Shown here: one piece after another, positions 53,501-64,000 of the stretch
How positions within the stretch are numbered: the stretch's first letter is position 1
How the letters are laid out: each line of letters opens with the position of its first letter
From: Candidatus Micropelagos thuwalensis
GTDB lineage: Bacteria; Pseudomonadota; Alphaproteobacteria; RS24
Assembly (NCBI RefSeq): GCF_000469155.1
Contig: NZ_AWXE01000003.1
Span: 62,001-126,000 of the forward strand
Reading direction: 5' to 3'
Length of the DNA: 64,000 nt
Program-made: the position numbers and the translations under genes
Notes under the pieces: model-generated
The model's input: only the letters and a program-made list of their open reading frames with translations
Database searches by the model: none
What the model was told of the DNA's origin: nothing

Positions 53501-53806
53501 TAAGGCTATATATTACCGAGTATTTGTTGACGCGCACCCTAAGTCAAATTGCTTTTTTCTTCAAGCATACCGGTATGAAAGACTAATTACCAAACGATTG
53601 TCTGTTACTTCCTGCTCAGTTATTAGTCCAACTGCTATGTAGTTTAAGGAGTCCTGCGAAGAAGTTCGCCGAGTAACTGAATGCACTCTCCTAATAAAGG
53701 GTTATGAATTATTAGCAAAGCGAATGTAAACATCCCGAAGTCACCCGCCGGAACTTGCAAAAGTAAAACAAATGCATGCAGCATGTATTTTTTAAAAATA
53801 ATGGCA
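53501..53806. other. Gene-free stretch holding the first tRNA-Ser-derived repeat
   Basis: These 306 bp between dapA and the reductase gene contain the dapA promoter region (53501-53640) and the decayed repeat at 53645-53769. No convincing open reading frame is present; a 71-codon frame overlapping the repeat has no coding features. Confidence 0.6.
53645..53769 (+). pseudogene. Strongly decayed tRNA-Ser-like repeat, copy 1
   Basis: This stretch aligns over about 125 bp with 57643-57770. Recognisable tRNA-Ser features are GCCGAGT at the D arm, a broken anticodon arm (CTCTCCTAATAAAGGG) and a damaged variable arm. The last 45 bp (GTAAACATCCCGAAGTCACC and on to CTTGCAAAAGTA) are almost identical to copy 2. 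The same orientation as copy 2 and a 4-kb spacing suggest flanking repeats of an inserted segment, or an old duplication. Confidence 0.65.
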
Positions 53807-55006
53807 TCAAGTTTCTTTTGGATCATCGAACTCGATACCGACCCTCTTGAGACGCTCAACTAATGGCATACCTAAACCAGTTGCACTGGTTAGAACACCA
53901 CCATAGTTTTTGCCACCGGGTAGTTCGTTAGCATTTTGAATAAGACACATTGCGCTTTCAGCTAAAAGTTTTGAAGTAACTTTATAACCCGGGTCACCTT
54001 CTCCGCGTATTGAAGAGACAAGCCTTTTTCCTGTAGCAGTTTTCAAAATAAACTTACAATCAAACCAACCCTTATCTCTAATGTCTTTAGAAGGTCCATC
54101 ACCGGGCTGCCTGAACATTGGGCGTAACAACTTACGCAGAGGAGAAAAAAGTATCCCTCCTATCATGGCCATGCCAAACATACCTTTTATTGCTTGCCAC
54201 CATGAAGAGTGATAAGAATATTCATTATAAACAAAATTAGCTCCATAAGGCTCCTGCACAAGCTCTGATAAAGCGGCAGAGCGACGAACTACACGCGTGT
54301 TTACGCCAGCCATGATGAATGGGCTACCATAACCTTTAATTTCTGGCCTAGAAATTATACTGTATTTATCTTTACTATTTTTTTTCATTTCGGGTGTAAA
54401 TGTACCGACTGGATTGAGCAAAAAAGGGTTCGTCATATCATCGATTTGAGCCACATCTGGCATAGAAAACATAGTCTCCAGCGTCCCGCCCGAAGCCTCA
54501 CCTTTATAAGAATGGAAAGCCTCTATTTGGCTAATCTGAACTCCTGCTTTTTTAATGGCATAGAAACTTCCTAAGTCAGATGGAATTGAGTCAAAACCGC
54601 AAGATGGGATGATTCTAACACCCTTTTTACTTGCCGCCTCATGGTGTTTCTCAATGAGGCCTTTAATCCAAAAGTTCTCCCCAGTTATATCTACATAATG
54701 AGTGGAATTCTTCACACAAGCAGCTACTAAGTTTGAACCATATCGATGAAACGGGCCAGCAGTTGAAAGTACGACATATGACCTCGCGGTAAAAGCCTCT
54801 AAACCATCAACATCATCAGAATCTGCAACGATGACTTCAACATCAACACCAATTGATCTGACAAGTTTTTCAAGTTTTGAATAATTACGACCTGCTACAG
54901 CCCACTTAATTTGCCCAGAGCTTTTTGCCAGATATTCAGCACAAAGGGTGCCTGTAAATCCAGTAGCGCCATATAAAACAATATCTAAGTCTTTAGAGAT
55001 GGTCAC
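53807..55006 (-). CDS. Saccharopine-dehydrogenase-like NAD(P)-binding reductase (trans-acting enoyl reductase type)
   Basis: A 399-residue protein. The N-terminal Rossmann domain begins DIVLYGATGFTGTLCAEYLA and continues KWAVAGRNYSKLEKL. GPFHRYGSNLVAACVKNSTHYVDITGE and PSCGFDSIPSDLGSF match the saccharopine dehydrogenase/trans-acting enoyl reductase family known from lipid synthesis in mycobacteria and from many marine bacteria. A hydrophobic stretch at about 275-290 may touch the membrane. Its start overlaps the stop of the repeat protein gene upstream by 4 nt, so both are made together. More AT-rich than the dapA block. Confidence 0.82.
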   Translation of the reverse strand: MTISKDLDIVLYGATGFTGTLCAEYLAKSSGQIKWAVAGRNYSKLEKLVRSIGVDVEVIVADSDDVDGLEAFTARSYVVLSTAGPFHRYGSNLVAACVKNSTHYVDITGENFWIKGLIEKHHEAASKKGVRIIPSCGFDSIPSDLGSFYAIKKAGVQISQIEAFHSYKGEASGGTLETMFSMPDVAQIDDMTNPFLLNPVGTFTPEMKKNSKDKYSIISRPEIKGYGSPFIMAGVNTRVVRRSAALSELVQEPYGANFVYNEYSYHSSWWQAIKGMFGMAMIGGILFSPLRKLLRPMFRQPGDGPSKDIRDKGWFDCKFILKTATGKRLVSSIRGEGDPGYKVTSKLLAESAMCLIQNANELPGGKNYGGVLTSATGLGMPLVERLKRVGIEFDDPKET

Positions 55007-56037
55007 TTACCTTTTGCTGGGGGAATAAAGAGAGAAGATTTTTTATCAAAACTCCCTTTAATCCATCGATGAGTAAGGTTTGACCAGTAACTCATCCCTC
55101 CCTCATCTTCTGGTAATAGTTCAATTAGATTATTTTTACCTTTTTTGGGACGAGTACGATTTTTAGTAATCTCATAAAGTTCAAAAATTTTTTCATTTTC
55201 TAAATCGGGATGGTCTTCATCAATATCTTCAAAAAACTTCCGCATAGCCCCCAGCGCCATTAATGCTCTTTTTTGTGGAACGTTTTCAATTTTATCAACG
55301 ACACCACCTGGCCACCAAAGAAAAACGTCAAAATGAGAAATAGAAGTTTTATAAGTCTGCTGCAGGTTTTTCGGGTTTGATTTTTTTACAGTATATTCCT
55401 TCCGATAACTTGGCACTTCAATTTGATTTAAGAATTCTATAGAAAAAATTACCTCTTCTAGCGCAATGGTAAGATCTTTTTTAAATACATTATGTTTTAA
55501 TCCAGGATTTTCGCCGCGCACACCGGCAAATGGATCGAGGTGTTTATTGCGATCATATGTTAAGTCGGAACCTGGTATAAAAGGTTCAAAGTTATAGTTT
55601 TGAGCCGTTTCATTAAAACATTTGATAATATCTGGGTGAGTTAAATCAGGATCTAGAGGATTAATTTTTTTATAAAACGATTGCATTCCTACTAACGCGA
55701 CACGCACCTCACGCTTAGGGACTTTGTATATTGAGGCTATTTTTTTTCCAGACCATTTAAAGTGGACATCAGCAAAGGATTTATCGTTTAGTTTTATATA
55801 ACTCCAGTTAGGTGGCTCTTTACCAAGAAGTTTTGTCTTTGCTCTGAAACGTTCAAGTAATGAAGCACGTTCAATCTCAGGAGGCATTTTTCCATCCCAT
55901 AAATCAATAGAAGACTGAATGTCTGCTAGTGCCTGTTGCTTATCAACTTCCATTGGAGAAAGTTTTTTTGCACTTTCTTCAGTAAATTTTTTATCACCCT
56001 TAATTCCACCAAATGGATCTAAATTTTTAGAGGACAT
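55003..56037 (-). CDS. Unknown protein made of two internal repeats
   Basis: A 344-residue soluble, lysine-rich protein that I cannot assign. It consists of two related halves, about 6-142 and 167-290. Each opens with L-D-P-F-(G/A)-G-(I/V)-(K/R)-G and ends with a matching block: FADVHFKWSGKK..VPKREVRVALVGMQSFYKKI in the first, HFDVFLWWPGG..VPQKRALMALGAMRKFFEDI in the second, then D-P-D-L or H-P-D-L. There is no signal peptide or membrane helix. Its stop overlaps the start of the reductase gene downstream (ATGA), so a working link with that enzyme is likely. Confidence 0.65.
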   Translation of the reverse strand: MSSKNLDPFGGIKGDKKFTEESAKKLSPMEVDKQQALADIQSSIDLWDGKMPPEIERASLLERFRAKTKLLGKEPPNWSYIKLNDKSFADVHFKWSGKKIASIYKVPKREVRVALVGMQSFYKKINPLDPDLTHPDIIKCFNETAQNYNFEPFIPGSDLTYDRNKHLDPFAGVRGENPGLKHNVFKKDLTIALEEVIFSIEFLNQIEVPSYRKEYTVKKSNPKNLQQTYKTSISHFDVFLWWPGGVVDKIENVPQKRALMALGAMRKFFEDIDEDHPDLENEKIFELYEITKNRTRPKKGKNNLIELLPEDEGGMSYWSNLTHRWIKGSFDKKSSLFIPPAKGK

Positions 56038-56163
56038 AACCCAGCCTATAAAATTTATCTCTTAATTTATTGTTATTGGAGTATAACCAATCTCTGAAGT
56101 GAAACAACTTTAACCTTTATAATGATTTTCTATGGGGGGATTCCATTTATGGGATGATAATTT

Positions 56164-57585
56164 ATGGCCGGTGATGAATTTCTCAAATCAATTGAAACCA
56201 ATTTTAGCAATGCTGTTGCAGCATTAAATACAACTGATAACGAAGAAAGAATTAGTAGTGACCTAGCTAATCAAATTATGCTCGCAAATTCTACATATGT
56301 GGTTCGCTTTGGAGTAAGACTTCGAGATACGCTTACAACTTTTACTGGTTTCAGATCAGTTCACTCTGAGCATTTTGAACCAGTAAAAGGGGGAATCCGT
56401 TACGCGCCTGATGTTAATCAGCAAGAAGTAGAGGCTCTTGCAGCACTAATGAGTTATAAATGTGCCCTTGTAGAAGTGCCTTTTGGTGGATCTAAAGGGG
56501 GGCTAATAATTGATCCAAGAGACTGGACGTCGGCCGAATTAGAAAGAATCACTCGTCGTTTTACCCAAGAGCTTGCTAAACGAGACCTTATTCATCCATC
56601 ACAAAATGTTCCAGCGCCAGATGTTGGAACTGGTGAACGTGAAATGGCTTGGATGGCAGACGAATACAAGCGGCTTAATCCCGCGGAGATTAATGCATGG
56701 GCTTGCGTTACTGGCAAGCCAGTTGCGAAAGGGGGTATTTCAGGAAGAGCAGAGGCCACAGGAAGAGGGGTGGTTTATGCTCTCCGTTCTTTCTTCGATT
56801 GTCCAGGGGATGTAACAAAGTCTGGACTGAAGCCAGGGCTAAAGGGAAAAAGAATAATAGTTCAGGGACTAGGCAATGTTGGGTATCATGCGGCAAAAAT
56901 TCTTTCTGAAGAAGATGATGCACTAATCACTCATGTCATGGAGCGTGATGGAGCAGTAGTAGACGAAAGTGGAATAAATATTGAGACCCTGAGGTCTCAT
57001 ATATCTTCAACTGGAAGTGTTTTGGGTTACTCAGGTTACGTTGAAAGCGGTTTAGAGATGTTGGAGTCAGATGCTGACATTATTATTCCAGCTGCAATGG
57101 AACTTGTTATCACGGAGGAAAATGCAAAGAATATCAAGGCGCCACTTATAATTGAGGCAGCAAACGGACCAGTCTCAGCAAAAGCCGACACAATTCTTCG
57201 AGATCGAGGGGTAATAATTATTCCTGACCTTTATGCCAATGCTGGTGGTGTTACCGTAAGTTATTTTGAATGGATTAAAAACCTAAGTCGTATTCGCTTC
57301 GGCCGTATGCAGCGTCGAGCTGATGAAAGCAGATATGGCGCATTAATTGAAGGCATCGAGGGCATTACAGGTAAGTCGTTTCCTGATGAGCTTGCAAGTC
57401 GTGCAATTAACGGAGGTGCAGAGATTGATCTTGTTCGTTCTGGTCTAGAAGACACTATGAGAAGCACTTATGATGTAATAAGCGAAGTTTGGAATAGGGA
57501 AAAGTCTGCAATTGACCTCCGAACTGCAGCGATGATGGTTGCAGTTCAACGCATAGCCCAGGGCTATCAGTCAATTGGTATATAG
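56164..57585 (+). CDS. gdhA: Glu/Leu/Phe/Val dehydrogenase (NAD(P)-glutamate dehydrogenase)
   Basis: A 473-residue amino-acid dehydrogenase, most like catabolic glutamate dehydrogenases. The substrate site is VKGGIRYAPDVNQQEVEALA with the catalytic Lys in MSYKCALVEVPFGGSKGG. The dinucleotide fold has IIVQGLGNVGYHAAKIL. The segment ANAGGVTVSYFEWIKNLSRIRFGRM is typical of the larger bacterial and mitochondrial enzymes. It is divergent from the repeat protein and ends 58 bp before the second tRNA-Ser-like repeat. Codon use and AT content match the flanking accessory genes. Confidence 0.9.
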   Translation: MAGDEFLKSIETNFSNAVAALNTTDNEERISSDLANQIMLANSTYVVRFGVRLRDTLTTFTGFRSVHSEHFEPVKGGIRYAPDVNQQEVEALAALMSYKCALVEVPFGGSKGGLIIDPRDWTSAELERITRRFTQELAKRDLIHPSQNVPAPDVGTGEREMAWMADEYKRLNPAEINAWACVTGKPVAKGGISGRAEATGRGVVYALRSFFDCPGDVTKSGLKPGLKGKRIIVQGLGNVGYHAAKILSEEDDALITHVMERDGAVVDESGINIETLRSHISSTGSVLGYSGYVESGLEMLESDADIIIPAAMELVITEENAKNIKAPLIIEAANGPVSAKADTILRDRGVIIIPDLYANAGGVTVSYFEWIKNLSRIRFGRMQRRADESRYGALIEGIEGITGKSFPDELASRAINGGAEIDLVRSGLEDTMRSTYDVISEVWNREKSAIDLRTAAMMVAVQRIAQGYQSIGI

Positions 57586-57642
57586 GTAACCTCATCGCTA
57601 CTTTCAGCTTAGTAATTGACCAAACCTCCCTGCTGTTCTATT

Positions 57643-57770
57643 TAGGAGTTCTGCGTAGAGAGGTGGCCGAGTGGCTGAAGGCGCTCCCCTGCTAAGGGAG
57701 TATGCGTTAATAGCGCATCGAGGGTAAACATCCCGAAGTCACCTGCCGAAACTTGCAAAAGTAGAATAAA
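57643..57770 (+). pseudogene. tRNA-Ser(GCU)-like sequence with replaced 3' end, copy 2
   Basis: From about 57657 the sequence follows a tRNA-Ser closely. It has an AGAGAGG acceptor strand, GGCCGAGTGGCTGAAGGC D arm, CTCCCCTGCTAAGGGAG anticodon arm with anticodon GCT, and ATGCG..CGCAT long variable arm. In the T arm it departs: the loop reads TAAACAT instead of TTCGAAT, and what follows cannot pair with the acceptor 5' strand. It is therefore probably a tRNA fragment fused to foreign sequence, as left by an integrase crossing over in the T loop. The same foreign 3' part occurs in copy 1. Confidence 0.7.
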
Positions 57771-57983: not shown

Positions 57984-58062
57984 ATCGTCCCAAGTAGCTA
58001 ACGGTTACGAGTACGCAGAGGACCAGTGGAGCGGATCCCAAGATCCGCGGAGGTGGGACGAT
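57984..58062. other. Palindromic structured element, possible ncRNA or mobile palindromic unit
   Basis: A perfect 9-bp outer stem ATCGTCCCA (57984-57992)/TGGGACGAT (58054-58062) encloses two further hairpins. One is GTAGC..GTTAC (about 57994-58008, one G-U pair); the other is a perfect GCGGATC CCAA GATCCGC (58031-58048). The block is markedly richer in G+C than the AT-rich DNA around it. The form is a closed multi-branch fold of 79 nt. It has no T-run on either side, so it is not a simple terminator. Confidence 0.5.
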
Positions 58063-58270
58063 GTTTCTATTAGTCATTAAACTTAAAACCATAATGTTTC
58101 AGAAGAACATTTCTTTTAGTACACTTCTCAAGATTATTTGCCTATATCTTTGAACAAAAATATAAAACTTTTAAAGAAGCAAAAACGTTAAACTAAAACT
58201 TATGAGAGTGTACAAATTTGAATCTTAACATTTAAAAATAACGTATTAAGAAAACTTTTTGTGCGGGGTG

Positions 58271-58717
58271 TTAATTATTTACAGCTTCTACGATTATTTG
58301 AAAAACTTCCCAACAAACCATTAAATCTTCTCGAAATGCTTCAGGTGAAGAAACCAGTAATCTGTTGTAGATAGCTTCGTTTGATCTGATTTCATAGTCT
58401 GAGACAACGCTACCTTCTTTTCTTGCCAGTAACAAAAAACCTGAACCCATCGATTGTGATAATTTATATAAAGGTTCTGATAATTTGTTCTCTGGCGCTA
58501 GTAACACCATATCAGATACTACTTTATTCAAAGCAGCACATCTTCCGTTAATAATTGTAAGAAGGGCACTATCATCAGTAGTTCTATCTTCAAGGCGTGA
58601 AAATATATTTCTGAGAGATCCTTCTGGGAAAGTGGTATAAGTTTTTTTGTTTTCTGTAGTAGAACATGCAACCAGAAATATAAGACCAATACTGAATATG
58701 AAAAATTTCTTTATCAT
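58271..58717 (-). CDS. Putative lipoprotein, unknown function
   Basis: A 148-residue exported protein. The signal peptide ends in the lipobox LVAC (Cys18), so it should be lipid-anchored. The mature part is helical and has two further Cys residues (RCAALNKVV, VCWEVFQII). No family recognised. It is the last gene of the minus-strand array of small exported proteins. Confidence 0.6.
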   Translation of the reverse strand: MIKKFFIFSIGLIFLVACSTTENKKTYTTFPEGSLRNIFSRLEDRTTDDSALLTIINGRCAALNKVVSDMVLLAPENKLSEPLYKLSQSMGSGFLLLARKEGSVVSDYEIRSNEAIYNRLLVSSPEAFREDLMVCWEVFQIIVEAVNN

Positions 58718-58800
58718 TTTAATCCAACAAAAGAACTCACTGATTTGTATTCGAGATGACCAAATTTAAAAAAATGTAAATAACTCGAATACCTTAACCG

Positions 58801-59100
58801 CTAATTAGCTTTTTTTAAACAAATTAAATTATAAATCTGAGCCTTGTTAGCAGCGCCAGATATTAATCCTCTCTCAGCTTCTAACCGCTCTTTATGCAAA
58901 TCTGATTGAACGTAAACTTGACCGCCTTCAGTTAAGCCATCTTCCATCAATCTTCTATATCGCTGTGCAGCTACTTGGAACTGCTTAATTTCTTTCATTA
59001 GAAGTTCGCAATCTACCTCCTCTGCAGTTGCAGGCAGTGAAAATAGAAATATCAATATTACAACTGAAAACTTAGAGAAGTTCTTTACAAGGATAAACAT
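58801..59100 (-). CDS. Small exported protein, unknown
   Basis: A 99-residue protein with a signal peptide (about 1-26, ending PATA) and a charged helical mature part. Two Cys (VDCELL near the start, NLICLKK near the end) could form a disulfide. Its start lies 29 nt inside the gene upstream (59072-59437), so the pair is translationally linked. No homologue recognised. Confidence 0.55.
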   Translation of the reverse strand: MFILVKNFSKFSVVILIFLFSLPATAEEVDCELLMKEIKQFQVAAQRYRRLMEDGLTEGGQVYVQSDLHKERLEAERGLISGAANKAQIYNLICLKKAN

Positions 59101-59437
59101 CTGCTAACTCATATAAAATAGCTAAGGTTGCGTTTTCTTTTCTATTACTTGGGTCTCTATTAACCGCTCTTTCCATCATTTCAATTGCTAGGTAATAGTC
59201 GTAAGCTGTCTCCTCAGGGGTGCAGATTTTTTTCCTATATTCCTTATCTTGAAAGTAAACCTCTGAGAATAAGATGCCATGCATCGTACCAATTATCCGA
59301 TAAAATACATCACTCTTGTCTTTGTTTTCCAGCATGTAACCAACGGTTAATTCTTCAGCGAATTCCTCATCATTTTCTGCGTAACTATCAGATACAATCG
59401 AGAAAAGCAGGGCGATAGTTAGAAGAAGTGGTTTCAT
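59072..59437 (-). CDS. Exported protein with Rap1a/Tai-like domain
   Basis: A 121-residue exported protein. The signal peptide MKPLLLTIALLFSIVSDSYA is the cassette also used by neighbours. The mature part, with LTVGYMLENK, MHGILF, then ICTPEETAYDYYLA and ending LAILYELADVYPC, fits the G-Y..G..C-x-P..F-P-C pattern of the Rap1a/Tai family, small periplasmic proteins first described as immunity partners of type VI amidase effectors. No effector gene is seen nearby, so an immunity role is open. Its ATG overlaps the stop of a residual reading frame that continues the upstream gene (see 59471-59842). Confidence 0.6.
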   Translation of the reverse strand: MKPLLLTIALLFSIVSDSYAENDEEFAEELTVGYMLENKDKSDVFYRIIGTMHGILFSEVYFQDKEYRKKICTPEETAYDYYLAIEMMERAVNRDPSNRKENATLAILYELADVYPCKELL

Positions 59438-59480
59438 TCCTTTATATTCTCTCTTTTTTTATAAAATTTATCACATACTT
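59427..59480. repeat. 54-bp direct repeat, copy 1
   Basis: Identical over 54 bp to 60127-60180. It spans the junction between the end of one paralogous gene and the ATG plus first codons of the next, marking the tandem duplication of a gene-plus-next-start unit. Confidence 0.85.
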
Positions 59481-59842
59481 TTTTGGAGAATTATTGCTTC
59501 TATTGTGTTAGGAGTCGGGCGGAATGCGTAACTTTCATATACCGTTACGTATACTATTTCTCCATTTATCTTATGGCGACTTAAGGGTGTAGCACCCGCT
59601 GCTCGAGTCATAAATAAACCGCAACGACCATAATAATATTCTACATCTGAAAAACTTTTAGAACCCGAATCTTTATCGATAAATTCGTGTAGGACATAAT
59701 AAAGAATGTATCTATCTTCTATTAAAGTTGGCTCAAAACCAACACGGAAAGTGTCTCCTTCTTTTCCCTCCACCATTATTTCCCACTCTGCCCAAGCAGG
59801 CGTCGAGAAAAGCAATGCGATAATGAGGAGAAGTGGTTTCAT
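59471..59842 (-). CDS. Small exported protein, tandem paralogue A (C-terminus truncated by frameshift)
   Basis: A 123-residue exported protein (signal peptide MKPLLLIIALLFSTPAWA). The mature part is about 60 percent like the product of 60134-60553 over its full length (EWEI..EGKEG, YYVL.EFIDKD, HKINGEI). At the end a run of six A in CTCCAAAAAAG, where paralogue B has CTTAGAGAAG, is one base longer. This shifts the frame, so it stops 13 codons early. The lost codons for DKFYKKRENIKE are still present in another frame down to 59434. Function unknown. Confidence 0.65.
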   Translation of the reverse strand: MKPLLLIIALLFSTPAWAEWEIMVEGKEGDTFRVGFEPTLIEDRYILYYVLHEFIDKDSGSKSFSDVEYYYGRCGLFMTRAAGATPLSRHKINGEIVYVTVYESYAFRPTPNTIEAIILQKSM

Positions 59843-59869
59843 TTATTTACCTTTGAGTCTTTGGAAGGG

Positions 59870-60052
59870 TTAATAATTGACTTCTTCCGCCTCTTCATCA
59901 GCAGCATAATCATGACCGCAATTTGGACAGCATCTAGAAAAGTCCATATCCTTTGGAGGCGGAGCAATTGTACTGAAGCTGTTCATTACATTTATGAAAA
60001 ATAAGTGCGAACATTTTGAACAAATAATATCTTGGATAACGATAGTAGTCAT
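59870..60052 (-). CDS. Small zinc-ribbon-like protein
   Basis: A 60-residue cytosolic protein with two C-x-x-C knuckles (ICSKCSH and CCPNCGHDY) about 30 residues apart, so it should bind one zinc. The tail is acidic. Unlike its neighbours it has no signal peptide. It starts 4 bp after the stop of the micro-gene at 60057-60137. Role unknown. Confidence 0.55.
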   Translation of the reverse strand: MTTIVIQDIICSKCSHLFFINVMNSFSTIAPPPKDMDFSRCCPNCGHDYAADEEAEEVNY

Positions 60053-60056
60053 AAGC

Positions 60057-60137
60057 TTATTCGTATAGACCTCGCTCGTTACATGACACTAAGGGAAATA
60101 TTGAAATAAATGCGATGGTGAGGAGTAGTGGTTTCAT
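60057..60137 (-). CDS. 26-codon micro-gene: signal peptide with lipobox only
   Basis: The reading frame begins MKPLLLTIAFIS, is followed by the lipobox PLVSC, and stops seven residues later. Its ATG overlaps the stop of paralogue B (ATGA). It is either a true lipopeptide or the start of a gene whose body was lost after the tandem duplication; in copy A the same start is joined to the Rap1a-like protein. Too short for normal gene finders. Confidence 0.5.
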   Translation of the reverse strand: MKPLLLTIAFISIFPLVSCNERGLYE

Positions 60138-60180
60138 TCCTTTATATTCTCTCTTTTTTTATAAAATTTATCACATACTT
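60127..60180. repeat. 54-bp direct repeat, copy 2
   Basis: Second copy of the 54-bp repeat at 59427-59480; similarity, at lower level, continues through the whole of the paralogous genes to about 60553. Confidence 0.85.
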
Positions 60181-60553
60181 CTCTAAGAATGATTGCTTCT
60201 AATGATTTAGGTTTTGGGCGGAATAAGAGACTTTCATATATAGTAAGGTATCTTATCTCTCCATTTATCTTATGGTGACTTAAGGGTGTAGACCCTACTG
60301 CTTGAGTCGCAAATGAATGACAGTGACCTTTGTAATATAATACTTCTGAAAAACTTTTAGAACCTGTGTCTTTATCGATAAATTCGTATAAGACATAATA
60401 GAGTATGTTTCCGTTTTCATTTAAAGTTGGCTCATAACCAACATGGATAGTTTCTCCTTCTTTTCCCTCCAGCGTTATTTCCCACTCTGCCCAAGCAGGC
60501 GTCGAGAAAAGCAGTGCGATGGTAACGACGAGAGTTTTGAGGGTGTGTTTCAT
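60134..60553 (-). CDS. Small exported protein, tandem paralogue B (full length)
   Basis: A 139-residue exported protein with signal peptide ending STPAWA. The mature part is the intact form of paralogue A (59471-59842) and ends with the basic tail CDKFYKKRENIKE. No family recognised. Its start overlaps the stop of the gene at 60550-60894 by 4 nt and its stop overlaps the micro-gene start by 4 nt, giving a chain of ATGA couplings. Confidence 0.65.
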   Translation of the reverse strand: MKHTLKTLVVTIALLFSTPAWAEWEITLEGKEGETIHVGYEPTLNENGNILYYVLYEFIDKDTGSKSFSEVLYYKGHCHSFATQAVGSTPLSHHKINGEIRYLTIYESLLFRPKPKSLEAIILREVCDKFYKKRENIKE

Positions 60554-60894
60554 AATTTTAGATTAAGCACTTCACAATTAAAATTTTCAACTGAGGACTT
60601 TATGTCCTTTTTTTGAGACGCAACAGTGTATCTTAAGGTCAGAGCTGTTCTATTAATAAATAATGAAACTTTGAAACCATCAGTATTTGAACTGCGTAAG
60701 CACTCGTAGAAAAATGGCTCTATAGTTCTGCATCGAAATTCTTCGCCATTGAACGTTGCAGTCTTTGCAACATCATTTTCATAATCTAACTTCAGATTTT
60801 GTTTGATTGTTCCACTTTTGCAAATAAGTGCTTTAGTATTTGCCCAAATTGGTGTCGAGAATAGAAGTGCGATGATTATAAAAATTTTTAACAA
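60550..60894 (-). CDS. Small exported protein, unknown
   Basis: A 114-residue exported protein. The signal peptide IIIALLFSTPIWA is a variant of the shared cassette. The mature part has four Cys (LICKS, EFRCRT, FYECLRS, FNCEVL), consistent with two disulfides in the periplasm, and looks beta-rich. No family recognised. Coupled by ATGA overlap to paralogue B. Confidence 0.6.
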   Translation of the reverse strand: MLKIFIIIALLFSTPIWANTKALICKSGTIKQNLKLDYENDVAKTATFNGEEFRCRTIEPFFYECLRSSNTDGFKVSLFINRTALTLRYTVASQKKDIKSSVENFNCEVLNLKL

Positions 60895-60922
60895 ATTTTA
60901 TGCTCTATGCGATTATTAAATT

Positions 60923-61486
60923 TTAATTTCCGTATCGTATTTTATCCCAAAAAGTTGGTGCTTTTGAAATTTTACGACATTTTCTAAAGGCAGATGCTTT
61001 ATAATCTTTATCAACCAGTTTATTAGGCATCAGAGAAACGACGCAATTATCAAAAATTGCCTCTTTCTCCTCAATATCAAGAACCTCTTTTTCTGAATAA
61101 AAATCCAAGCAATTTGTCTTGGATTCAGACTGGTAAAATAGAGTTAAATCATCATCATCGTCGGGGGGATATCTGCCATCAAAGCCTTCTTTAAATGAGG
61201 ATGCAGGAGGTATATCGACGTTGACGGTATGAATATTCCCCCCTCTATCCTGCCAAGACAATTTTTTAATTGTAGTATTGAGTGGGTTAAAGAAACTTAT
61301 CTGAATCCCAAGTCCATTTCCTGACCGGAATACACCAGTAGTATAGTATGATAGCTTATATTCTTTCCAAACGGGCTCGGCCCAAGTCTTACATAGCTTT
61401 TTATCGTTTTTTTCGTAACTGTCAGATGCTGTCAGTAAAAGCAGGGCTAAGGTGAGGAAAAGAGGTTTTAAATAAGAGTTATTCAA
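60923..61486 (-). CDS. Exported protein, unknown
   Basis: About 187 residues. No ATG lies where the signal peptide begins; the best start is TTG at 61484-61486, just before the stop of the upstream gene, giving NNSYLKPLFLTLALLLLTASDSYEKND. This copies the MKPLLL..SDSYAEND signal of the Rap1a-like protein. The mature part is probably beta-rich with an aspartate cluster PPDDDDDLTLFY. The longest frame would start at 61537 inside the upstream gene and gives no proper signal. Function unknown. Confidence 0.55.
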   Translation of the reverse strand: MNNSYLKPLFLTLALLLLTASDSYEKNDKKLCKTWAEPVWKEYKLSYYTTGVFRSGNGLGIQISFFNPLNTTIKKLSWQDRGGNIHTVNVDIPPASSFKEGFDGRYPPDDDDDLTLFYQSESKTNCLDFYSEKEVLDIEEKEAIFDNCVVSLMPNKLVDKDYKASAFRKCRKISKAPTFWDKIRYGN

Positions 61487-61964
61487 TATCAACTTCGCAA
61501 TCAGCCCAGTAATATGCAGTAACAATATGCCTACCACCTAGAGCGGTTTCAGGATTGCCAGTAGAACGGACAGCATAAAGTTTTTTTTCTGAGACATCTA
61601 AGTTAGTAATCCACCACTGAAACCCATACTGACCAAAAGATCTTATCAACCCCTTATCGGCAGCCATGACAAATTCCTCATCCCATTTTGTGCCAGCCAA
61701 CTGCGCAACTTCTTTAGCACTAATACCATCGGATTGTGTGCTTTGTGCATACACTTTTAATTTATCTGGGGTGTCTGTATCAAAGATGTAATGCCATGAT
61801 GCTCCCGTGTATGCATCAGGGTTATCTTTGTTTATCTGTCCAAATGAGTATGAACTACTTTTGCCTTTTGGTTCAAAACAAGTTGCATAAACAGTTGCAG
61901 CAGAAGCATTTCTAGCTAATGCAGTAATAAAAATAACTAAAATTAAAAATATCAGATTTTTCAT
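61479..61964 (-). CDS. Exported protein, unknown
   Basis: A 161-residue exported protein from the ATG at 61964, which has AAGGAG seven bases upstream; an ATG six codons earlier lacks this. A signal peptide of about 22 residues ends NASA. The mature part holds Trp-rich segments (GASWHYIFD, YGFQWWITNLD, AYYWADCEVD) and two Cys. It is the first complete gene of the array; its ATG overlaps the TGA of the beheaded fragment upstream. Confidence 0.6.
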   Translation of the reverse strand: MKNLIFLILVIFITALARNASAATVYATCFEPKGKSSSYSFGQINKDNPDAYTGASWHYIFDTDTPDKLKVYAQSTQSDGISAKEVAQLAGTKWDEEFVMAADKGLIRSFGQYGFQWWITNLDVSEKKLYAVRSTGNPETALGGRHIVTAYYWADCEVDIE

Positions 61965-62062
61965 TTTTGACTCCTTAAACAATCCTTTTTTCCATCAATA
62001 TAACCATCATTGAAACCTTTAGCGTAGTCAGGATTATCAAAATAACCATATTTCTGTTCACA
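61961..62062 (-). pseudogene. Beheaded coding fragment at the CRISPR locus boundary
   Basis: One minus-strand frame reads CEQKYGYFDNPDYAKGFNDG, then YIDGKKDC and a short basic end, then TGA overlapping the next ATG (ATGA), just like the other couplings in the array. The composition is clearly protein-like. Upstream the frame runs into the T-run and hairpin of the candidate tracrRNA terminator (62065-62092), and no start codon exists. It looks like the 3' end of an array gene whose beginning was replaced by the CRISPR locus. Confidence 0.5.
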
Positions 62063-62064
62063 CC

Positions 62065-62092
62065 AAAAGAAAAAGGCGTCCCGTAGGACGCC
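62065..62092 (-). terminator. Intrinsic terminator of the candidate tracrRNA
   Basis: A perfect 7-bp G+C-rich stem (62075-62081 with 62086-62092) and 4-base loop, followed on the minus strand by TTTTTCTTTT. No minus-strand protein gene lies upstream that could use it. Confidence 0.85.
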
Positions 62093-62160
62093 CTATCAAT
62101 GGTGTAAATTCTTACTTGTTAACCCTAGCAATAATTTACCTATTCCCAAGTAGTTCTATT
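62070..62160 (-). ncRNA. Candidate tracrRNA of the type II CRISPR-Cas system
   Basis: The minus strand between the cas9 start and the exported-protein array carries a short transcription unit without a reading frame. From 5' to 3' it has an about 40-nt unpaired or anti-repeat-like part (62116-62160), a small nexus-type hairpin GTAA..TTAC (62104-62115), a linker, and a terminator stem GGCGTCC/GGACGCC with a T-run (62070-62092). This order is that of type II tracrRNAs, which commonly lie beside cas9. The repeat itself is outside the window, so the anti-repeat cannot be proved here. Confidence 0.62.
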
Positions 62161-62206: not shown

Positions 62207-64000
62207 ATGTCCGAAAAATATCGACTAGGGCTCGATGTGGGAACAAATTCACTTGGATGGGCTGTTATTGGGCTGAAAGAAGATGTGCCATCCAGCGTTT
62301 TAGCAACCGGTGTAAGAATATTCTCTGAGGGTCGTGATGCAAAGACCAAGTCAACATTAAAAGCCAGTAGAACCGAGAAAAGATCAGCTCGCCGTCGTCG
62401 AGACAGGTTCCTTCAAAGACAAACTTTCCTCATATCAGAAATGGTAAAGTCTGGTTTATTTCCAAAGGATATAGTTGAACAAAAGAACTTAGAACTTCTA
62501 GACCCATACGAAATTCGTTTTAAAGCCCTCACAGAGCAAGTACCTCTCCACCATCTAGGCCGTGCTTTATTTCATATTAACCAAAGGAGAGGTTTTAAAT
62601 CTTCCAGAAAAGACAAAAGTGAGGAGACAACCTCTGGGGTTGTGTCGAAGTCAGTTCGTGCACTTTATGAAGAGATGCAGCTCATTAATCCTGCTCCTGT
62701 TATCGATGATCCTAAAGCCCTTTCTAAGGAAGAGCGGAGAGAAATCAGAGTTCAAGAAGCGTCTAGTCGAGAAGAGGCTTTAGTGACGCTTGCTGAACAA
62801 AAAGGAGTTACTTTCGGGGCTTTTCTATACCGAAGGCTGCAATCAGGTAAATCTGTTCGAGCGAGGAAAGACGCAGATAGTCAATTATATGATGTGTATC
62901 CAACCCGAGAACTTCTTAAGGACGAGTATTCGAAACTGATGCAACATCAGGCTCAATACTATCCAAATGTTATCAATGAGGCTCTGATATCAAGACTTCA
63001 TGATGTCATTTTCTTCCAAAGAAAACTGAAAGAACAGGAAAGAGGGTTTTGTACCTATTATCCTTCTGAAAGACGGACTTTTAGGTGCATGCCGAGTTTT
63101 CAACAATACAGAATGGTTCAAGAGCTAAATGCGCTTGAGTGGGTTGACGCGGCAGGTAAACATTGCCTTCGAGATTATCCAGAATCTAGAGACCTCATAC
63201 TTAGTGAATTGGAGAATATTTCTACAAAGGCCGGAGAATTCACCTTTGGGAACATGAAGAAAATTCTAAAAAAAATGGGAGTTATTGACGGAGAAGTTTC
63301 CTTCAATTTCGAAGGTCCAAAAAGAAAAGGTTTTCAAGGCAATGTTACATCTCGCGAAATGCGACACGAGGATTGTTTTGGAACTCGTTGGGATGAATTA
63401 TCGTTAGATGAGAAAGATGACATCATAGATAAAATTAATGATGACCATCTAGATGATGAAGACATGGAGCGTTATCTCATAGATACCTATGGTCTGTCTT
63501 CTTTCTCAGTGGGTAATGCCATAAATGCCCGCCTACTAGAGGGGACTGCTAATGTCTCCCGAAAGGCTGCGCGCACTCTTTATGAAACCATGCTATCTGC
63601 AAATTGTCTTCAATCAGATGCCGTGATCGCAGTTTCTGAGCAAGATGACACCTTTGTAAATCCTTACAGCAGGACAGGTCGTGGTGAGTTGCTTTCTGAG
63701 CTTCCTTATTATGGAGAAGCCTTTCAGGATGGTCGACACATCATTCCGGGTAAACGAGAACCAAAAGTCTCGCATGATCAGTTAAAATTTTACGGGGGGG
63801 TATCTAATCCAACTGTTCATATTGCTCTCAATCAAATTCGGTTGGTCGTTAACGAAATTATTAAAAGATATGGGTTGCCGTCTTCTATTAGCATCGAACT
63901 CGCAAGGAACTTGCCTGAGGGACAAGATGGGCGTCGCAAAATTGAGAAAATGCAATCGGAAAACCAGAAAAATAACGAACGATATGACCAGATACTTACA
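62207..64000 (+). CDS. cas9: CRISPR-associated endonuclease Cas9, type II-C-like, N-terminal 598 codons
   Basis: An RNA-guided DNA nuclease, open to the right edge. RuvC-I is YRLGLDVGTNSLGWAVIG with catalytic Asp10. The arginine-rich bridge helix is KASRTEKRSARRRRDRFLQR (about 53-75). HINQRRGFKSSRK begins the REC lobe. RuvC-II follows the conserved NPTVHIALNQIRLVVNEI and is SISIELARNLP with catalytic Glu near 564. The short REC lobe (RuvC-II at about 564) fits type II-C rather than II-A. HNH, RuvC-III and the PAM-interacting domain lie outside. The ATG has an AAGGTGG site 7 bases upstream. Nothing in the visible part is broken. Confidence 0.95.
   Translation, partial: MSEKYRLGLDVGTNSLGWAVIGLKEDVPSSVLATGVRIFSEGRDAKTKSTLKASRTEKRSARRRRDRFLQRQTFLISEMVKSGLFPKDIVEQKNLELLDPYEIRFKALTEQVPLHHLGRALFHINQRRGFKSSRKDKSEETTSGVVSKSVRALYEEMQLINPAPVIDDPKALSKEERREIRVQEASSREEALVTLAEQKGVTFGAFLYRRLQSGKSVRARKDADSQLYDVYPTRELLKDEYSKLMQHQAQYYPNVINEALISRLHDVIFFQRKLKEQERGFCTYYPSERRTFRCMPSFQQYRMVQELNALEWVDAAGKHCLRDYPESRDLILSELENISTKAGEFTFGNMKKILKKMGVIDGEVSFNFEGPKRKGFQGNVTSREMRHEDCFGTRWDELSLDEKDDIIDKINDDHLDDEDMERYLIDTYGLSSFSVGNAINARLLEGTANVSRKAARTLYETMLSANCLQSDAVIAVSEQDDTFVNPYSRTGRGELLSELPYYGEAFQDGRHIIPGKREPKVSHDQLKFYGGVSNPTVHIALNQIRLVVNEIIKRYGLPSSISIELARNLPEGQDGRRKIEKMQSENQKNNERYDQILT

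What the first reader, a model, noticed from the sequence alone, without database searches (positions are those of the whole stretch)
62207..64000. Type II-C-like Cas9 at the right edge with intact RuvC-I, bridge helix and RuvC-II
The visible 598 codons contain Asp10, the Arg-rich bridge helix and the RuvC-II Glu in the right order, with a compact REC lobe. Cas9 is unusual in free-living marine-type alphaproteobacteria with streamlined gene sets, so this may be a new branch with its own PAM and guide RNA.
Basis: partly seen in the sequence, partly recalled or inferred. Interest (0 to 1): 0.75.

Follow-up and report, generated by a model that had tools for sequence, protein, structure and literature searches.

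The report
Cas9 immunity on a mobile island
The cut-off gene at the window's edge is a complete Cas9 with its guide-RNA partner and a 12-spacer memory bank, carried without the genes for making new memories on a small (11.6 kb) island inserted at a tRNA gene, and four of the spacers match tailed phages next to a shared sequence signal, so it looks like a ready-loaded, probably read-only anti-phage weapon on a mobile element.

Summary
The ORF continues past the edge to an intact 1110-aa Cas9 (window frame 62207-65539) with all RuvC and HNH residues. A 13-repeat/12-spacer array starts at its stop codon, and a tracrRNA whose anti-repeat pairs with the repeat lies upstream on the minus strand. cas1 and cas2 are absent from the whole genome (99.4% complete); every other relative in the Cas9 clade with enough downstream sequence carries cas1, whole or in pieces.

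The locus lies inside an 11.6-kb island bounded by identical 140-bp direct repeats covering the 5' part of tRNA-Ser(GCU). The island has a tyrosine integrase, a phage-type mini polymerase (family-A/single-subunit-RNAP palm) and small secreted proteins. A congener has no island at this site; another has a sister island with different cargo.

Each of four spacers scanned with 16-nt seeds matched an IMG/VR contig at 0-2 mismatches (tailed-phage portal, tail chaperone, tail fibre and helicase-primase genes); a fifth matches at 4. All four close matches have 3' flank TGC(A/C)A. This predicts a PAM and shows the array is a real anti-phage memory. Element movement and Cas9 activity are inferred. Closest precedent: CampyICE1, a large ICE with Cas9 but no cas1/cas2. 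New variant of a known kind.

The parts
57586..57725 (+). attL: left copy of a 140-bp direct repeat (71 bp upstream sequence plus the first 69 bases of tRNA-Ser). The right copy, attR, lies beyond the window at 69163-69302, inside and upstream of the intact tRNA-Ser(GCU) 69234-69324 (L002:9163-9324)
   Evidence: 100% identical copies; tRNA by ARAGORN
57996..58063 (+). 68-nt internal repeat, copy A, at the left edge of the cargo block (possible replication or recombination site, function inferred). Copy B lies beyond the window at 66440-66507 (L002:6440-6507)
   Evidence: 97% identical; a third, 93%-identical copy lies about 250 bp past tRNA-Ser(GCU) in a family relative
58271..61982 (-). Run of nine short ORFs (58271, 58801, 59072, 59471, 59870, 60134, 60550, 60923, 61479), most with signal peptides or lipoprotein leaders; accessory cargo of unknown function
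   Evidence: no significant Pfam/PADLOC match; two are 84% identical duplicates
62073..62155 (-). tracrRNA: anti-repeat 62117-62155, intrinsic-terminator-like hairpin 62073-62094
   Evidence: best duplex with the repeat in the 20-kb locus outside the array, -41.1 kcal/mol; terminator scan
62207..64000 (+). cas9, in-window part (598 of 1110 codons); the gene ends at 65539 beyond the window (L002:2207-5539). Also beyond the window: CRISPR array 65540-66368 (L002:5540-6368, 13 repeats, 12 spacers, crRNA on minus strand), mini polymerase gene 66619-68025 (L002:6619-8025, +), tyrosine integrase 68100-69080 (L002:8100-9080, -)
   Evidence: cas9; array; polymerase; integrase:

Best explanation
An 11.6-kb integrative mobile element at tRNA-Ser(GCU) carries a type II-C-like interference module (Cas9, tracrRNA, 12-spacer array) that has lost cas1-cas2. 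Mechanism: the array is transcribed on the minus strand and processed with the tracrRNA (presumably by host RNase III, or with short crRNAs as in other II-C systems). Cas9 then cuts tailed-phage DNA whose protospacer is followed by TGCMA. The module is probably a read-only memory that travels with the island, protecting the host and so the element. Shown: intact Cas9, co-varying repeat/anti-repeat, array, missing adaptation genes, exact attL/attR, sister islands, PAM-consistent protospacers in phage genes. Inferred: expression, cleavage, current mobility, no spacer acquisition in trans.
For: Complete Cas9 with all catalytic residues. Array begins at the cas9 stop codon. tracrRNA pairs at -41 kcal/mol; each of three family members pairs well with its own partner, while G013 pairs poorly with the other two. 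No cas1 or cas2 match in the genome, with working controls; relatives with whole contigs have both, and G013 keeps only a cas1 fragment. 100% identical 140-bp repeats at the island ends. G005 has dapA directly beside tRNA-Ser, and G004 has a 5.1-kb island with the same ends and other cargo. Int+polymerase pairs recur at tRNA-Gly and tRNA-Leu in a congener. Protospacers: spacer 2 (0 mismatches), 3 (1), 12 (1), 4 (2), 10 (4), all in phage genes; 3' flanks TGCCA, TGCCA, TGCAA, TGCAA, AGCAA. 2400 shuffled spacers gave no match at 6 or fewer mismatches in these contigs. A syntenic phage contig sits in a same-family genome.
Against: No experiment. The PAM rests on four close flanks and was read off after the fact. 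0-2 mismatches to sampled phages imply recent acquisition, which fits poorly with a long-lost adaptation module; the loss may be recent, or acquisition may happen in trans. The assembly could have dropped or mis-joined cas1-cas2 at the repeats, although the rest of the genome has none. No promoter was recognised for array or tracrRNA by the sigma-70 scan. Excision was not tested.
Confidence: 0.78

Rival explanations
1. Ordinary chromosomal type II-C system in decay: cas1-cas2 were lost by deletion, the array is a fossil, and the island boundaries matter little to it.
For: The sibling G015 has cas9-cas1-cas2-array beside the same tRNA-Ser, on its 3' side, with no integrase recognised in the ORFs examined nearby; G013 has a cas1 stump; the array abuts the cas9 stop, like a deletion scar, with the terminal repeat truncated.
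Against: The whole module lies between identical att repeats with an integrase. Cas9 and the tracrRNA are intact, and spacers match sampled phages at 0-2 mismatches with a shared PAM, so decay has at most just begun.
Confidence: 0.15
2. Complete system whose cas1-cas2 are missing only through assembly error, or which borrows Cas1-Cas2 from other elements.
For: Array repeats are a typical mis-assembly point; near-perfect phage matches suggest recent acquisition; trans use of host Cas1-Cas2 is known for type IV plasmid systems (PMC11656645).
Against: No cas1 or cas2 in the whole genome at 99.4% completeness, while the control genomes ring; no cas1 in the five same-genus genomes either.
Confidence: 0.12
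3. Phage satellite: the element is packaged by helper phages, and Cas9 is its tool against helper or competing phages.
For: Size, att repeats, integrase, a polymerase-like gene and no structural genes fit the working definition of a satellite (PMC13376191); the targets include head and tail genes of siphophage-like contigs.
Against: No packaging, capsid-remodelling or phage-responsive gene recognised; no relative of Cas9 or the polymerase found in the IMG/VR scans. A satellite that cuts its own helper would block its own transfer unless it used a different one.
Confidence: 0.2

Closest known systems
CampyICE1 degenerate type II-C CRISPR-Cas9 (PMC8743540)
   Same: Type II-C Cas9 with tracrRNA and spacers but no cas1/cas2, on an integrated mobile element; short arrays
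   Different: CampyICE1 is a 70-129 kb conjugative element with three scattered arrays mostly targeting plasmids; here a compact 11.6-kb island with integrase and mini polymerase, no conjugation genes recognised, one array adjoining cas9, matched targets all tailed phages
Complete type II-C locus of Rhodobiaceae SI074_bin84 (JABJKE010000034, G015)
   Same: Cas9 62% identical, similar repeat and tracrRNA, same tRNA-Ser neighbourhood
   Different: Has cas1 and cas2, only two repeats, lies on the 3' side of the tRNA, no integrase recognised nearby
Phage satellites (PICI/SaPI, StCI; PMC13376191)
   Same: 7-20 kb, attL/attR repeats, integrase, replication-type gene, no structural genes
   Different: No regulator, terminase-small or capsid-interference gene recognised; cargo is a CRISPR effector; mobilisation untested
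Tycheposons (described in PMC10872708)
   Same: tRNA-associated cargo islands with a tyrosine recombinase in streamlined aquatic bacteria
   Different: Homology of recombinase and termini not tested; Cas9 cargo not mentioned in the passages read

Membership tests
Cas9 (TIGR01865) | Full-length match above the curated cut-off | tested here: met
   599 bits against a cut-off of 100, profile 1-1070/1070
Cas9 (TIGR01865) | RuvC-I D, bridge helix, RuvC-II E, HNH H/N, RuvC-III H/D | tested here: met
   D10, E564, H648, N671, H795, D798; aligned to 9ar4_A
Type II CRISPR-Cas | CRISPR array next to cas9 | tested here: met
   13 repeats, 12 spacers
Type II CRISPR-Cas | tracrRNA with anti-repeat | tested here: met
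   62073-62155 minus strand, -41.1 kcal/mol; co-variation across three genomes. Expression untested
Type II CRISPR-Cas | cas1 and cas2 (adaptation module) | tested here: not met
   None in the genome; the relatives have them
Subtype II-C | No csn2 or cas4 | tested here: met
   No such gene recognised among the island ORFs; the subtype definition also expects cas1-cas2, so this is a degenerate II-C-like locus
Integrative mobile element | attL/attR at a tRNA gene plus integrase | tested here: met
Integrative mobile element | Empty site in relatives | tested here: met
   G005 and other congeners lack the island; dapA directly adjoins tRNA-Ser in G005. Congeners, not the same species
Integrative mobile element | Excision and transfer | not testable with these tools
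   needs PCR or reads
Phage satellite | Helper-dependent induction and packaging | not testable with these tools
   no recognisable packaging gene
Tycheposon | Homologous recombinase and conserved termini | not tested
   no tycheposon sequence was compared
Family-A/single-subunit polymerase (element gene) | Palm fold with catalytic Asp pair | tested here: met
   VIA Z 13.2, rmsd 4.6-4.8, about 250-260 residues aligned; D273, D293, H396 and D397 invariant; activity untested

The most novel reading that the evidence does not exclude
A Cas9-armed phage satellite: a small, helper-mobilised island of marine bacteria that keeps only the cutting half of a type II CRISPR system as a fixed, pre-loaded set of guides against competing tailed phages, swapping this cargo with others between shared element ends.
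Probability: 0.22. Interest if true: 0.82.

Novelty: new variant of a known kind. Interest (0 to 1): 0.6.

Why it matters
It shows how an immune memory can be stripped to its effector half and carried on an 11.6-kb island, with direct evidence (protospacers plus a shared flank) of what it targets in streamlined marine-type bacteria, where CRISPR is uncommon. It gives a concrete test of whether mobile elements carry read-only CRISPR immunity, and it supplies a new Cas9 with matched tracrRNA and a predicted TGCMA PAM. The link between this bacterial family and the targeted phage contigs is a usable host prediction.

Tried and rejected
Lone Cas9/IscB-like relic: rejected, since array and tracrRNA are present. 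Array against INPHARED phages: no match. Array against PLSDB plasmids: only 24-nt chance hits at E=10. Array against 192 relative genomes: apart from its own array and the G015 repeats, only weak chance-like hits; the cluster on spacer 10 turned out to be 6-7-mismatch matches. Long exact seeds (23 and 20 nt) for spacers 1 and 5 in IMG/VR: none; 16-nt seeds then worked for spacers 2, 3, 4 and 12. Cas9 relatives in IMG/VR: none confirmed. Close relatives of the polymerase there: none. Spacers aimed at sister islands: none at 6 or fewer mismatches in the loci held. Sigma-70 promoters for array and tracrRNA: none. Rfam: only tRNAs credible. A Glu in place of Asp before the HNH His looked special but occurs in 22 of 29 Cas9s with a readable motif. 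Single-strand DNA fold of the 68-nt repeat: not better than shuffles (z -1.16).

Full report
Coordinates above 64000 continue the window frame into the contig (locus L002: L002 x = window 60000 + x).

OBSERVATION. The window is G000:C3:62001-126000 of a 1.96-Mb genome in five contigs, 99.4% complete. The frame starting at 62207 runs off the window and continues in the contig to 65539, giving an unbroken 1110-aa protein. It matches TIGR01865 Cas9 at 599 bits over the whole profile, and the HNH and RuvC-III Pfam domains above their cut-offs. D10, E564, H648, N671, H795 and D798 are present and invariant in the close family, and the regions align with a solved Cas9.

GUIDE RNAs. Directly after the cas9 stop codon lies an array of 13 repeats (36 nt, consensus AGCTTACCACTTGGGAATAGGTAGGGCTAGAGCAAC on the + strand) and 12 spacers of 30-31 nt; spacers 1 and 7 are identical and share a repeat variant, so a segment was duplicated. 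The best partner of the repeat in 20 kb of flanking DNA, outside the array itself, is on the minus strand just upstream of cas9: an anti-repeat at 62117-62155 (-41.1 kcal/mol) followed by a hairpin and T-rich tail at 62094-62073. In two other members of the family (G015, G013) the same arrangement is found; G013 pairs at -37 with its own partner and at only -25 to -28 with the others', so repeat and anti-repeat have changed together. The pairing places crRNAs on the minus strand.

NO ADAPTATION GENES. Neither cas1 (PF01867) nor cas2 (PF09827) is found in the genome by searches whose control genomes ring. Of 30 related loci from named genomes, those with enough sequence downstream of cas9 carry cas1 (split in L067; a short weak match in the fragmentary L084) and nearly all carry cas2; the exceptions are contigs ending within or just after cas9, and G013/L058, which keeps only a cas1 stump. 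In the 144-genome relative set, Cas9 carriers almost always have cas1. In the sibling G015, cas1 and cas2 occupy the 1.3 kb between cas9 and the repeats; here that stretch is gone and a truncated terminal repeat abuts the stop codon, which reads as a deletion scar.

THE ISLAND. A 140-bp sequence at 57586-57725 recurs with 100% identity at 69163-69302. The right copy is the upstream region and first 69 bases of an intact tRNA-Ser(GCU); the left copy is the same fragment without the rest of the tRNA. Between them are 11.6 kb holding the integrase (68100-69080), a 468-aa phage-type protein (66619-68025), the Cas9 module and a run of short ORFs with signal peptides. The G+C content is 40% against 45% in flanking DNA. 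In congener G005 dapA lies directly beside the tRNA-Ser. G001 and G002 have ORF344 there but no Cas9 island. G004 has a 5.1-kb island between two att copies whose left end matches ours at 86% over 377 bp but whose cargo is a 1512-aa subtilase-autotransporter. A decayed third att copy (53644-53772, 78%) next to dapA marks an older insertion. A 68-nt repeat flanks the cargo block (57996-58063 and 66440-66507) and recurs about 250 bp past tRNA-Ser in G010. The site is thus a recurrent hotspot for elements with shared ends and changing cargo.

THE POLYMERASE-LIKE GENE. It matches PHROG 4756 (unknown function, E 1.9e-48), and has distant homologues in Vibrio, Rheinheimera, Aeromonas and ICP1 phages. 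An AlphaFold model from ten homologues (mean pLDDT 73) matches family-A DNA polymerases and mitochondrial RNA polymerases over residues about 140-433 (Z about 13, about 250-260 residues, rmsd 4.2-5.3 A). Invariant D273 and H396-D397 sit where motifs A and C should be. Integrase plus this gene recurs at tRNA-Gly and tRNA-Leu in G001, each with a secreted or lipoprotein cargo gene, so the pair is likely the element backbone. That it replicates the element is inference.

TARGETS. Scans of IMG/VR with 16-nt PAM-proximal seeds of four spacers each returned background matches (6-13 mismatches in the other 14 bases) and one clear outlier: spacer 2 (0 mismatches, L138, tail assembly chaperone), spacer 3 (1, L114, portal), spacer 12 (1, L110, tail fibre J-like) and spacer 4 (2, L124, helicase-primase). 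Spacer 10 matches L110 with 4 mismatches in the major head/protease gene. The bases 3' of the protospacer in crRNA orientation are TGCCA, TGCCA, TGCAA, TGCAA and, for spacer 10, AGCAA: GCMA in all five, TGCMA in the four close ones. None of 2400 shuffled spacers came within 6 mismatches of any of these contigs. The contigs are tailed phages by gene content. L110 and L138 are syntenic with a phage contig in a same-family genome, G012 (portal 65%), which links these targets to this bacterial family, subject to binning error.

MECHANISM. Shown by sequence: the effector, its guide RNAs, the memory, the absence of adaptation genes, the island boundaries and PAM-consistent phage targets. Inferred: transcription, crRNA maturation, cleavage, and that the island still moves. 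The simplest account is a mobile island carrying a fixed set of anti-phage guides. The near-perfect matches mean acquisition was active recently, so either cas1-cas2 were lost recently or spacers were added in trans.

COMPARISON. The closest precedent is CampyICE1, a 70-129 kb conjugative element with a II-C Cas9, no cas1/cas2 and mostly anti-plasmid spacers, described by its authors as to their knowledge the first such case (PMC8743540). A 2024 review of CRISPR in mobile elements (PMC11656645) never uses the word satellite, and in the Cas9 passages found it mentions only a phage Cas9 with dead RuvC. The element fits the size and anatomy used to define phage satellites (PMC13376191) and resembles tycheposons in siting (PMC10872708), but mobilisation was not tested, so it is not filed as either. 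In the Cas9 tree it pairs with G015 (100) inside a clade of gammaproteobacterial, Nitrospirota and Rhodobiaceae MAGs; best identity outside the family is about 50-53%, and no solved Cas9 is close.

VERDICT. Real, intact and more interesting than a Cas9 at the window edge: an adaptation-less, phage-targeting Cas9 module as cargo of a small tRNA-integrated island. New variant of a known kind.

Noticed in passing
53644-53772 and 53807-57585: A decayed third att copy beside dapA, with SDR, ORF344 and glutamate-dehydrogenase-like genes between it and attL, suggests an older, stacked insertion at the same tRNA-Ser.
   Followed up: partly
59412-59821 and 60112-60520: An 84% identical 410-bp duplication of a small signal-peptide gene inside the island; the same leader style recurs in cargo of other Int+polymerase islands. 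One neighbour (59072-59437) weakly resembles Rap1a immunity proteins (E 0.024).
   Followed up: partly
L054:6490-13203 and L053:1310-5440: Two more integrase+PHROG 4756 islands in a congener, at tRNA-Gly and tRNA-Leu: a possible undescribed element family with a mini family-A-like polymerase.
   Followed up: partly
L051:10764-15302: Sister island at the same tRNA-Ser carries a 1512-aa subtilase-autotransporter and no integrase or polymerase, so it may be mobilised in trans.
   Followed up: no
L006:1-4602: Another Cas9 with a truncated cas1 and a short array lies next to a tRNA-Pro-like sequence in G013 (Ww409), with tRNA 3'-end-like sequences on the far side; possibly a second tRNA-associated Cas9 insertion.
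   Followed up: no
G000:C3:31031-31993 and G000:C5:107444-108409: Two further homologues of the island integrase (45% and 35%) elsewhere in the same genome, outside the window.
   Followed up: no
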